The notes under the pieces are model-generated. The model did no database searches, was not told where the DNA came from, and was given only the letters and a program-made list of their open reading frames with translations. The translations under genes and the position numbers were made by a program. 40,835 bases of DNA from Acidobacteriota bacterium (lineage in GTDB: Bacteria; Acidobacteriota; Vicinamibacteria; Vicinamibacterales; JAFNAJ01): positions 130,531-171,365 of the forward strand of contig JAHDVP010000005.1 of the NCBI GenBank assembly GCA_023384575.1, in the 5' to 3' direction. Position 1 is the first letter of the stretch. The number at the start of each line of letters is the position of its first letter. Of the stretch, positions 33,713 through 40,835 are shown in pieces.

Positions 33713-35347
33713 ATGGGACGACTGGACAGGGAGTCGCTCGACCTGGTCATCGGCACGCTGCGCGAGTACGCGGCGCGGGAGCTGAGACCCGAAGTCCTCC
33801 TCCAACTGGATCACGAAGACCGATTCCCGATGTCGGTGCTGCGCGATCTGTACGATCCGCAGCAGATCGGCCTGCACCTGCTGTTTCTGCCCGAGGACGT
33901 GGGTGGGCTCGGTGGTGGCGCCTACGACATCTACCGCGTGTCGGCGGCGATGGCCGAGATCGATCTGGGCATCGCCACCGGGGTCCTGGCGACCTTCCTG
34001 GGCACCGACCCGATCATGGTGGGCGGAACGCCCGACCAGAAGCGACGCTGGATGGGACGCATCGCCGACGAGGGCCTGCTCGTGGCCTACGGGGCCACCG
34101 AGCCGCAGGCCGGCAGCGATCTCACCGCCCTGACGACCACGGCGGTACCGGTGCGGGACAACGGTCACGTGACGGGGTACTCGCTGAGCGGGCAGAAGCA
34201 GTGGATCAGCAACGGCGGCGTCGCGACGCTCTACACCGTCCTGGCCAACGCGCCCGGTGGCCCATCGTGGTTCGTCGTGGAGAAGGGCACGCCCGGATTC
34301 GCGGCTGGCAAGCCGGAGGACAAGCACGGCATCCGCGCCAGCAACACGACGATGCTCTTCCTCGACAACGTGTTCGTGCCCGCCGACCACCTCGTCGGCG
34401 AGACGGAGGGACGGGGCCTCGCGCAGGCGCAGGCCGTCTTCGGCTACACGCGACTGATGGTCGCCGCCTTCGGCCTCGGGGCCGGCTGGGCGGCGCTGCA
34501 GCGTGCGATCCGCTACTCGCAGCAGCGAATCGCCGCCGGGACGCCGCTCTCGCAGAAAGCGGGGTACACCCACAAGCTGATCGTGCCGAACGCCGTCGCC
34601 CTCGAGGCCTCACGGGCGTACATCGAGTGGGCCGCTGAACGGATCGACGGCGGTGAGCCGGACCTCGCCACCGAGGGCGCGATCGCGAAGTACCTCGCCA
34701 CCGAGGCCGGCAACCGGGCGGCCGAGGATGCGATTCAGGCGCATGGCGGCAACGGCTACACGAAGGAGTACCTCGTCGAGAAGATCAAGCGCGACGTCCG
34801 CATCACGACGATCTACGAGGGAACCTCCGAGATCATGGAGTGGACGATCGCGCGAGATCGATGGCAGGCGCATCTGAAGACGCGCGGCGCGTTCTACCGC
34901 GACTGGGCGAGCCGCCTCGATCATCGCCACGCCGCCGCGCCCGCGTGTGGCGCCTCGACGGCGGCCCTCGCCCTCAGTTCGCTCGCCACACTGCTCGAGC
35001 GCTGCCGTCTCGACCGCCTCACCCGCAACCAGCACGTGCTCTTCAGGCTCGGACACGTGATCGCGCATGCCGAGGCGGCCGCCGTGTTCGCCGAGCGGTC
35101 GGTCACGCATCCGACGACCGCCATGCCCTTCGATTCGACGCTGTGGCAGGTGATGGCCCGCGTATTCGCCCGCGACGCCGTCCATCGCGTCGTGTTCGAC
35201 GGCCTGCGATGGGCGGCTGGTGCCGGGCAGACCGACGCCTCGCTGCTCACGAACCTCGATGCCGCCGGGGCCGCCGCGTCGCAGGCGGGCCTGCTCGAGG
35301 ACATGGATGCCATCGCGCGCCGCCTGACGGAGTGCTTTCCGCCATAG
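33713..35347 (+). CDS. Acyl-CoA dehydrogenase
   Basis: This 544-residue FAD enzyme oxidises an acyl-CoA at the alpha-beta bond. It has the signature [12 protein letters not shown] (126-137), QKQWISNGG (162-170) in the FAD-binding middle domain and [14 protein letters not shown] in the C-terminal domain. YEGTSEI has E369 at the position of the catalytic base. About 150 extra residues after the usual end make it longer than the common ~380-residue type, as in large acyl-CoA dehydrogenases. The start at ATG 33713 was chosen from the family N-terminus; an in-frame upstream ATG at 33647 is less likely. It precedes the giant lipid synthase by 184 nt on the same strand and may act on its product or supply its starter. 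Confidence 0.87.
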
Positions 35348-35531
35348 CGGTGCGGCGACGGGCGCCGCGCGGCCGGTCCCCGTCGTGGTTCGGAGAAATC
35401 GTCGTCCCGGGGGCTGCGGGTCGGGCGCCCCCACATGAGCCCGCCCCACCTCGAATCCTCGTTCGCGTGGATCTGTTGGTGGTCCGCCCGCGCCGCGCTC
35501 TGCCGACGCGGGCACGCTGCGGGAGTGTGGT
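35348..35531 (+). other. 184-nt gap between the acyl-CoA dehydrogenase and the lipid synthase
   Basis: No gene or clear promoter is seen. A small GCGGC...GCCGC hairpin lies just after the dehydrogenase stop. The stretch GGAGTGTGG before ATG 35532 may serve as the ribosome-binding region. Confidence 0.4.
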
Positions 35532-38500: not shown

Positions 38501-40835
38501 GCCTTCACCGTCTTCCGCCTCGACATCGCCATCCATGGACACCATCGCCAGTCTCTTCGCCTCTGCGCTGCAGGCGGCTGCGTCCCCTGTCGCGCGGCCC
38601 TTCGATCGCAACGACCCGCCGACGGGCTCGGTGGTCATCACCGGCACCGGCTTGGGCCTGCCGGGTGCCGAGAAGGCCGTGATGGACCCGGCCAACGCGG
38701 AGCGCATCCTGCGCGGCGAGCAGTTCATCGATCTCGTCCCCGAGCGATTCCGCGTGCAGATGGCCCGCAGGCACGTCACGCGTGTCGTCAAAGCCGAGGA
38801 TGGGAGCGGCAGCTTCCAGACCATCGACGACACGGCTGACGTGATCAAGCTGGCCGGCCGGCCCGGCAGCTTCGATCTGACCGCCGAGTTCGGCGTGCCG
38901 GAGAAGCTCGTCGAAGCCCTCGACACCACGACGCAGCTGGCCATGGCCGCCGGCATCGATGCCCTGCGCGAGGCCGGGATTCCCCTCGTGCAGACCTGGC
39001 GCAAGACGACCACGGGCAAGTTCCTGCCCGACCGCTGGATGCTGCCCGAGCCGCTTCGCGACGACACGGGCGTCGTCTTCGCCTCGGCGTTTCCCGGCAT
39101 GGATCGCTTTGCCGACGAGGCCGAGCGGTACTACACCCACGAAGCGCACCTCGCCCAGCGCGAGATGCTCGAGCAGTTGCGTCAGATCACCCGGGATCCG
39201 GAGACGCTGCGCGAGCTGCAGCGGCGCCTCGCCGCCGTCGAGGCCGACCTGGCGCGCGAGCCCTACGCGTTCGATCGCCGATTCATCCTGGGCGTGCTGG
39301 CGATGGGCCACAGCCAGTTCGCCGAGTACATCGGCGCACGCGGCCCGAACGCCCACGTCAACGCCGCCTGCGCGGCGACCGCACAGGGGCTGGCCCTCGC
39401 CGAGGACTGGATCCGAGCGGGTCGCTGCCGACGCGTCGTCGTCATCGGGGCCGACAACGTGACGAGCGAGAAGCTGCTGGGATGGGTCGGGGCCGGGTTT
39501 CTCGCAACCGGCGCGGCGGCGACCGACGACAAGGTCACCGAGGCGGCCGTGCCGTTCGACCGGCGACGCCACGGCACCATCCTGGGGATGGGCGCGTGCG
39601 GGCTGGTCGTCGAGAGCCAGGACGCCGTCGAGGAGCGGGGTATGCGCGGCATCGTCGAGCTGCTCAGCACGGAGACGCGGAACAGCGCGTTTCACGCGAC
39701 GCGGCTCGACGTCGACCACGTGGCCCAGGTCGTCGAGAGCCTCGTGGCGGCCGCCGAGCGGCGCTTCGGGATCAATCGCCACCACATCGCCCCGGAAACG
39801 GTGTTCGTCTCGCACGAGACGTTCACTCCCGCCCGCGGCGGCAGCGCGTCCGCCGAGGTCGCCGCGCTGCGTCGCGTGTTCGGTCCCGCGGCGAGCGAAA
39901 TCGTCGTGGCCAACACGAAGGGCTTCACGGGCCACCCCATGGGCGTCGGCGTCGAAGACGTCATCGCGGTCAAGATCCTCGAACACGCCATCGTTCCCCC
40001 CGTGCCCAACTACAGGGAGGTCGACCCCGATCTCGGGCCGCTCACGCTCAGTCGTGGCGGCCGTTACCCTGTCAAGTACGCGATTCACCTGGCCGCGGGC
40101 TTCGGCTCGCAGATCGCGCTCACGCTCACGCGGCGCATCCCGGGCGGCCTCGACCGCATCGACAGCCAGGCCCGCTACCAGACGTGGCTCGACGCCGTCA
40201 GCGGGTACGATCGCGCGACGCTCGAGACGGTGAAGCGAACCCTGCGTGTCGCGTCGAAGGGTGTGCCGGCCCGGACGCCAGAAGCGCTCCGCTGGACCTG
40301 GGGCACCGGTCCGGTGCGCCGGTCACCCGCGCCGGGAGACCGGGCGGTTGCGCCGAGCCCGCTCCCCGTTGTGGTGCAGGCCACACCCCCGGTCTCGGCG
40401 CCAGCGGTGCCAACACCCCAGCCCTCAGCCGCCCACAGCCCGGATCCCGGGCCGCCAGCCCTCCCGCGGGTCGCGGTTGCCGTACCGCCGCCTCCGCCCG
40501 CGGCATCCAGCGGCATCGCACCCCGGGGCGACACGATGGCCGCCGAGGCCAGTCGTTCGACATCGGGCGAAGACGGCGTGCGAACGACGGTGCTCGGGAT
40601 CGTCGCCGAGAAGACGGGCTACCCGTCCGACATGCTCGAGCTCGATCTCGACCTCGAGGCCGACCTCGGCGTCGACACCGTCAAGCAGGCGGAGACGTTC
40701 GCGGCCGTGCGCGAAGCCTACGGTATCCCCCGACTGGACGATCTCAAGCTGCGCGACTTCCCCACCCTGCGCCACGTCGTGGGCTTCGTGCTCACCCACC
40801 GGCCCGACCTCGCCGCCGCGACGCCGGCCACGGCG
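35532..40835 (+). CDS. Pfa-like type I lipid/polyketide synthase, KS-AT-KS'-ACP... (partial at right edge)
   Basis: At least 1768 residues are read in one frame to the window edge. KS1 (about 8-460) has the full triad C215 (DAACASS), H349 (VEAHGTST) and H387 (SNVGH). The acyltransferase (about 603-900) has FPGQGSQ and GHSLGEYAA with nucleophile S702, then SHAFHT. A Pro/Ala linker leads to KS' (about 1034-1535), a divergent ketosynthase with C1280 (NAACAAT), H1428 (SHETFTP) and H1468 (FTGH). A Pro-rich linker (about 1590-1670) leads to a carrier domain (about 1685-1755). Its attachment motif reads GVDTVKQ: Thr1716 stands where Ser normally carries phosphopantetheine. The order resembles PUFA-synthase-like secondary-lipid enzymes, but a second KS before the ACP is not classical PfaA. 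The product is unknown; reductive domains would lie to the right. Confidence 0.85.

What the first reader, a model, noticed from the sequence alone, without database searches (positions are those of the whole stretch)
33713..40835. Undescribed secondary-lipid synthase locus: acyl-CoA dehydrogenase plus KS-AT-KS'-ACP megasynthase
The giant protein shares KS1-AT architecture with PUFA-synthase-like enzymes but inserts a second, divergent ketosynthase before the carrier. KS' keeps a Cys-His-His set (C1280, H1428, H1468) with near-normal spacing (148 and 40 residues, versus 134 and 38 in KS1), so it may be catalytic and not a chain-length factor. The upstream dehydrogenase could desaturate or degrade the product. 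The product class is not predictable from known families.
Basis: partly seen in the sequence, partly recalled or inferred. Interest (0 to 1): 0.65.

Follow-up and report, generated by a model that had tools for sequence, protein, structure and literature searches.

The report
Type R secondary-lipid synthase operon
A soil-type bacterium carries a giant fatty-acid-building enzyme of a class first described in 2011 whose product is still unknown; comparison of about 90 relatives shows that its supposed 'chain-length' domain keeps a complete catalytic site and that a dehydrogenase gene nearly always travels with it.

Summary
The window ends at a 100-N assembly gap inside tandem carrier repeats, not at a gene end. 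Beyond the gap the gene continues as ACP-KR-DH and stops, then a translationally coupled PPTase, then a convergent multidomain acetyl-CoA carboxylase. The synthase is KS-AT-KS'-ACP(3 or more)-KR-DH. This is not undescribed: it matches 'Type R' of Shulse & Allen 2011 (KS-MAT-CLF-ACP-KR plus PPTase, in Roseiflexus, Solibacter, Koribacter), product unknown. Hundreds of loci exist across Chloroflexota, Acidobacteriota, Myxococcota and others. New relative to that paper's text: (1) the slot labelled CLF keeps Cys-His-Lys-His in 92 of 92 sequences (one final His in a gap), has the FabF/KAS II fold and is not the PfaC CLF lineage; (2) a VLCAD-like acyl-CoA dehydrogenase sits directly upstream in 77 of 80 testable loci, joined in Terriglobia by ETF and a membrane Fe-S oxidoreductase; (3) a DH domain is present, but no ER domain and, in 11 of 12 genomes, no PfaD. 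Best explanation: an iterative long-chain acyl synthase with a second active ketosynthase, whose missing enoyl-redox step is served by the ETF-linked dehydrogenase. The direction of that step and the product are not shown.

The parts
33647..35347 (+). VLCAD-like acyl-CoA dehydrogenase (ACAD); alternative start 33713; catalytic Glu in the IYEGTSE motif
   Evidence: Pfam PF02771/PF02770/PF00441; AlphaFold model pLDDT 91, best full-length matches human VLCAD and bacterial long ACADs; YEGT present in 71/71 partners
35532..40835 (+). Type R synthase, N-terminal 1768 aa (KS-AT-KS'-ACP), interrupted by an assembly gap at the window edge; continues outside as ACP-KR-DH
35532..36941 (+). KS1 (C215, H349, H387), PfaA-type ketosynthase
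   Evidence: 45% identical to a canonical PfaA KS; C-H-H in 13/13 Type R and variant KS1 domains (the 14th row there, L027, is a KS' picked up by mistake because that short locus lacks KS1)
37332..38213 (+). acyltransferase, malonyl type (GHSLGEY, HAFH)
   Evidence: PF00698; both motifs invariant in 47 synthases apart from one L-to-V and one T-to-S change
38679..40166 (+). KS', second ketosynthase domain with FabF/KAS II fold, C1280-H1428-K1463-H1468
   Evidence: C-H-K-H in 92/92, one gap at the last His; model pLDDT 74, VIA-align Z about 31 to KAS II
39369..39371 (+). codon of the KS' nucleophile Cys1280
40569..40826 (+). first acyl carrier protein of a tandem array
   Evidence: PF00550; near-identical copies continue past the gap

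Best explanation
This is a Type R secondary-lipid (FAS/PKS) operon. Shown by sequence: one synthase KS-AT-KS'-ACPn-KR-DH, its own PPTase overlapping its stop codon, a dedicated VLCAD-like acyl-CoA dehydrogenase upstream, and an acetyl-CoA carboxylase next door. Inferred: malonyl-CoA from the carboxylase is loaded by the AT onto the ACPs; KS1 elongates iteratively; KR and DH turn each keto group into an alkene. The second ketosynthase KS' is catalytically competent and carries out a separate condensation, or chain take-over, step rather than only setting chain length. Because there is no ER domain and usually no PfaD, the dehydrogenase acts on the enoyl/acyl chain (ACP- or CoA-bound), exchanging electrons through ETF and a membrane Fe-S oxidoreductase with the quinone pool. 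The product is a long or very long acyl chain. Whether the dehydrogenase works as reductase or desaturase is open.
For: Domain layout and completion past the gap; PPTase ATG overlaps the synthase stop; ACC; catalytic residues of KS1, AT, KS', KR and DH kept in relatives; ACAD directly upstream on the same strand in 77 of 80 testable loci over several phyla; ACAD and KS' co-occur in 22 of 24 KS'-positive versus 10 of 372 KS'-negative genomes, Fisher p 2e-26, with no correction for shared ancestry, and of the closest ACADs without a KS' hit two sit next to KS1-AT at a contig end; EMO-EtfB-EtfA-ACAD-synthase on one strand in about 21 Acidobacteriota loci, and a different ETF pair in one Chloroflexota locus; no PfaD in 11 of 12 carrier genomes; Type R definition in PMC3098273.
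Against: No product, activity or expression data. The ETF/EMO genes are not beside the synthase in the window's own genome; its only ETF pair sits in the FAS II operon. ACAD enzymes normally work on CoA esters in the oxidising direction. One Frankiaceae locus (L104) and two KS-KS-AT-KS' variants (L053, L054) lack the adjacent ACAD. KS' has HETxTPA where elongating KSs have HGTxT, so it could be an acyl-transfer domain. FabI in the genome could in principle serve the synthase.
Confidence: 0.6

Rival explanations
1. The ACAD runs as a dehydrogenase after synthesis: it desaturates the finished acyl chain at C2-C3 (or starts its breakdown) and passes electrons through ETF to the respiratory chain.
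For: VLCAD-like fold with intact catalytic Glu; ETF and EMO-like genes in the operon of Terriglobia, the usual outlet of beta-oxidation.
Against: It leaves the synthase with no enoyl reductase of its own. The shared neighbour clusters that were identified (three by Pfam) did not include a hydratase or thiolase, but not every cluster was identified.
Confidence: 0.3
2. KS' is a chain-length factor or structural partner of KS1, as the CLF label in Shulse & Allen implies.
For: Position and published label; divergent HETxTPA motif.
Against: C-H-K-H kept in 92 of 92 (one gap), whereas a PfaC CLF from a co-resident pfa cluster has lost Cys and the first His; a common clade of KS' with that CLF is rejected (p-AU 1e-4, long branches); KS' branches on the FabF side.
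Confidence: 0.12
3. The synthase has no ER step and makes a polyene, as enediyne-type systems do; the ACAD acts elsewhere.
For: No ER domain; no PfaD in 11 of 12 genomes; PKSE-like KS-AT-ACP-KR-DH plus PPTase order (recalled, not tested).
Against: The near-universal ACAD linkage is then unexplained.
Confidence: 0.15
4. It is the cell's main fatty acid synthase rather than a secondary one.
For: PPTase and ACC are next to it.
Against: The genome has a FAS II operon with FabD, FabG-like and FabF genes and FabI; only 2 of 40 searched genomes of its order, itself included, carry a close KS'.
Confidence: 0.03

Closest known systems
Type R secondary lipid synthase (Shulse & Allen 2011, PMC3098273)
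   Same: Single PfaA homologue with KS-MAT-[second KS domain]-ACP(n)-KR, PPTase downstream, ACC gene associated; found in Roseiflexus, Solibacteraceae and Acidobacteriaceae as reported.
   Different: The second KS domain is catalytic by sequence and not a CLF; a DH domain follows KR; ACAD (with or without ETF/EMO) is part of the operon, which the paper's text does not mention. In this genome the ACC is convergent, on the other strand.
Pfa (PUFA) synthases, Types A/B, PfaA-E
   Same: KS1-MAT-tandem ACP-KR order; KS1 45% identical to a PfaA KS; TIGR02813 is the best NCBIfam model.
   Different: No PfaC KS-CLF-DH-DH partner at the locus and no PfaD in the genome; KS' is not of the PfaC CLF lineage.
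VLCAD / long bacterial acyl-CoA dehydrogenases (human ACADVL, PDB 3b96; 2z1q; 3owa)
   Same: Full-length fold including the C-terminal helical domain, catalytic Glu.
   Different: About 25% identity over the full length; genomically tied to a synthase.
FabF (KAS II)
   Same: KS' fold and C-H-K-H.
   Different: Long helical insertion before the active Cys; HETxTPA replaces HGTxT; a domain of a megasynthase.

Membership tests
Type R secondary lipid synthase | One PfaA homologue: KS-MAT-second KS-fold domain-ACP(3-6)-KR | tested here: met
   at least 3 ACPs (two full copies plus the end of a third that differs in sequence); 1-6 by motif count in relatives
Type R secondary lipid synthase | PPTase gene downstream | tested here: met
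   PF01648 protein starting inside the synthase stop codon
Type R secondary lipid synthase | Same lineage as the founding hosts (Roseiflexus, Solibacter, Koribacter) | tested here: met
   Same operon at about 60-78% KS' identity in Roseiflexus, Solibacteraceae and Acidobacteriaceae loci; the founding strains' own records and Elusimicrobium were not compared directly
Type R secondary lipid synthase | The slot after MAT is a chain-length factor in the strict sense (catalytic Cys lost) | tested here: inconclusive
   Not so here: Cys kept. The Roseiflexus and Solibacteraceae members keep it too, so the published label, not the membership, appears to be at fault; the founding sequences themselves were not examined
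Canonical Pfa (PUFA) synthase | PfaD-type enoyl reductase in the genome | tested here: not met
   No TIGR02814 match in G000
Canonical Pfa (PUFA) synthase | TIGR02813 PfaA score above cut-off | tested here: inconclusive
   699 + 226 bits on the two halves split by the gap, cut-off 1010; unbroken Type R relatives mostly exceed it
Chain-length factor (PfaC or type II CLF) | Active-site Cys replaced | tested here: not met
   Cys in 92/92, against Cys lost in the PfaC CLF control
KAS II-type ketosynthase | Thiolase-like KAS II fold with Cys-His-His and Lys | tested here: met
   activity not testable here
Acyl-CoA dehydrogenase (VLCAD-like) | ACAD N/M/C domains, catalytic Glu, C-terminal extension domain | tested here: met

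The most novel reading that the evidence does not exclude
Type R synthases are fatty acid/polyketide synthases with two active ketosynthases in one chain, whose enoyl-reduction step is outsourced to an ETF-linked acyl-CoA dehydrogenase fed from the menaquinol pool instead of NAD(P)H, a redox coupling not known to me for fatty acid synthases.
Probability: 0.25. Interest if true: 0.75.

Novelty: new member of a known kind. Interest (0 to 1): 0.42.

Why it matters
Type R is a widespread secondary-lipid synthase type without a known product: at least 468 loci in a species-level collection, in phototrophic Chloroflexota and soil Acidobacteriota among others. The near-invariant ACAD partner, the intact second ketosynthase and the absence of a standard enoyl reductase turn 'unknown lipid' into a concrete minimal gene set (ACAD, synthase, PPTase, optionally ETF/EMO) that can be expressed and assayed. 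It also questions the published CLF label.

Tried and rejected
Frameshift or pseudogene: rejected; the frame change lies at an arbitrary 100-N gap and relatives are open over 2.5-3.3 kaa. PDB sequence search for a characterised full-length homologue: the best hits are PKS modules and KS-AT pieces aligned over KS1 and AT, none seen spanning KS'. Sponge swf FAS paper: different architecture, KS-AT-DH-ER-KR-ACP. The 2026 survey of hybrid PUFA-type systems does not mention Type R, Acidobacteriota or Chloroflexota. No held paper combining ETF, menaquinone oxidoreductase, ACAD and EMO was found. The first KS tree contained two wrong-frame rows and was rebuilt without them. In the KS1 count one row (L027) is really a KS'.

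Full report
WHAT IS THERE. The window is G000:C5:130531-171365. The finding's two genes are real: an acyl-CoA dehydrogenase (ACAD, 33647 or 33713 to 35347) and a 1768-aa ORF from 35532 to the window edge. Pfam gives KS, AT, a second KS stretch and a carrier.

THE EDGE. The window ends at a 100-N scaffold gap within near-identical carrier repeats. After the gap the gene resumes (L007 5968-8961): the end of one ACP, another full ACP, KR (PF08659) and a double-hotdog DH (PF21089/PF14765), then a stop. The change of frame over the gap is meaningless because the gap length is arbitrary. With the ACP in the window this makes at least three ACPs. A PPTase (PF01648) starts with an ATG overlapping the synthase stop. 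A 1.9-kaa multidomain acetyl-CoA carboxylase lies convergently behind it.

IS IT KNOWN? Shulse & Allen 2011 (PMC3098273, read) define twenty types of 'secondary lipid' synthases. Type R is 'KS-MAT-CLF-ACP(3-6)-KR' plus a downstream PPTase, in Koribacter, Solibacter, Elusimicrobium and Roseiflexus, with an ACC gene in between in Koribacter; its product is uncharacterised. The present locus matches, and a scan of a species-level genome collection brings up the same operon in Roseiflexus, Chloroploca, Oscillochloris, Solibacteraceae, Acidobacteriaceae, Myxococcota, Actinomycetota, Calditrichota and Gammaproteobacteria (468 confirmed loci, best 80 kept). ACC lies between synthase and PPTase in Acidobacteriaceae-type loci, as the paper says for Koribacter. 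So 'undescribed' is not supported. No held paper was found that names a product, but only open-licence papers could be searched.

KS' IS NOT A CHAIN-LENGTH FACTOR BY SEQUENCE. C-H-K-H is kept in 92 of 92 KS' domains (90 distinct; one has a gap at the last His), including Roseiflexus and Solibacteraceae. A PfaC CLF, taken from the canonical pfa cluster of the Viridilinea genome, has lost Cys and the first His. In a tree KS' falls on the FabF side of a fully supported split, away from PfaA KS, PfaC KS and PfaC CLF, and forcing KS' together with the CLF is rejected (p-AU 1e-4); the stem is very long, so its exact place is unsure. The AlphaFold model (pLDDT 74, parts poor) matches KAS II enzymes, VIA-align Z about 31, 344 residues, 3.4 A. 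KS' differs from elongating KSs in HETxTPA for HGTxT and in a helical insertion before the Cys. Catalysis is therefore likely but not shown.

THE DEHYDROGENASE BELONGS TO IT. Of 91 loci compared (a few are duplicates), 76 have an ACAD ORF of this family directly upstream on the same strand and one more (L102) a fragment of it at the contig end; 11 loci are contigs cut in the synthase; L053, L054 and L104 lack it. In 396 genomes of the phylum, 22 of 24 with KS' have the ACAD, against 10 of 372 without KS'. Of those ten, G201 and G145 have KS1-AT beside the ACAD at a contig end, G325 is a cut contig, and the others are more distant ACADs (55% identity or less) without a synthase nearby where checked. 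The ACAD model (pLDDT 91) is VLCAD-like over its full length, and the catalytic Glu motif is present in 71 of 71. In about 21 Acidobacteriota loci the ACAD is preceded on the same strand by ETF-alpha, ETF-beta and an Fe-S/CCG oxidoreductase with a hydrophobic N-terminal part; a Chloroflexota locus (L073) has a different ETF pair in the same place. The 2011 paper's text has no mention of dehydrogenase; its figure could not be seen.

MECHANISM. Shown by sequence: malonyl-type AT motifs, KR Ser-Tyr-Asn, DH His plus Glu/Gln, all nearly invariant; no ER domain found; PfaD absent in 11 of 12 carrier genomes. Inferred: iterative synthesis of a long acyl chain, with the ETF-linked ACAD supplying the enoyl/acyl redox step. 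From general knowledge, reduction of enoyl-CoA by menaquinol is thermodynamically allowed, so either direction is possible. In the window's genome the only ETF pair, with an EMO-like protein, sits in the FAS II operon, so the electron route there would be in trans. FabI exists and cannot be excluded as the reductase.

EVOLUTION. Only G000 and G002 among 40 searched genomes of its order carry a close KS', while the nearest relatives outside the family are at 70-78% in Chloroflexota and 78% in another Acidobacteriota family, against about 54-64% in most other Acidobacteriota. This fits horizontal transfer; no tree of hosts against synthases was made. The host phylum is read as Acidobacteriota because a same-phylum genome's contig (G099:C6) has the length and match position of a contig named Blastocatellia (L116).

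VERDICT. Real, complete apart from an assembly gap, and a member of a published but uncharacterised type. The added value is the active-site evidence on KS', the DH, and the near-invariant ACAD(-ETF-EMO) partnership.

Noticed in passing
L158 9281-16511 (G000:C10, minus strand): The genome's only ETF-alpha gene lies in an operon-like run fabD-fabG-(acpP)-fabF-etfB-etfA-EMO-like, i.e. electron-transfer genes are tied to fatty acid synthesis genes here too.
   Followed up: partly
L053 and L054: Variant synthases with an additional N-terminal ketosynthase (KS-KS-AT-KS'-ACPn) and no adjacent ACAD; in L054 the extra KS has Gln for the first catalytic His.
   Followed up: partly
L154, L155 (Viridilinea mediisalina genome, G415): A phototrophic Chloroflexota genome carries both the Type R operon and a canonical pfaA/pfaC/pfaD set.
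   Followed up: partly
L007 9748-15393, minus strand: Eukaryote-like single-chain acetyl-CoA carboxylase (BC-BCCP-central-CT, about 1.9 kaa) in a bacterium; Acidobacteriota relatives have it between synthase and PPTase.
   Followed up: partly
window 32276-33499: Ig-like/PKD-domain protein directly upstream of the ACAD, apparently unrelated to the operon.
   Followed up: no
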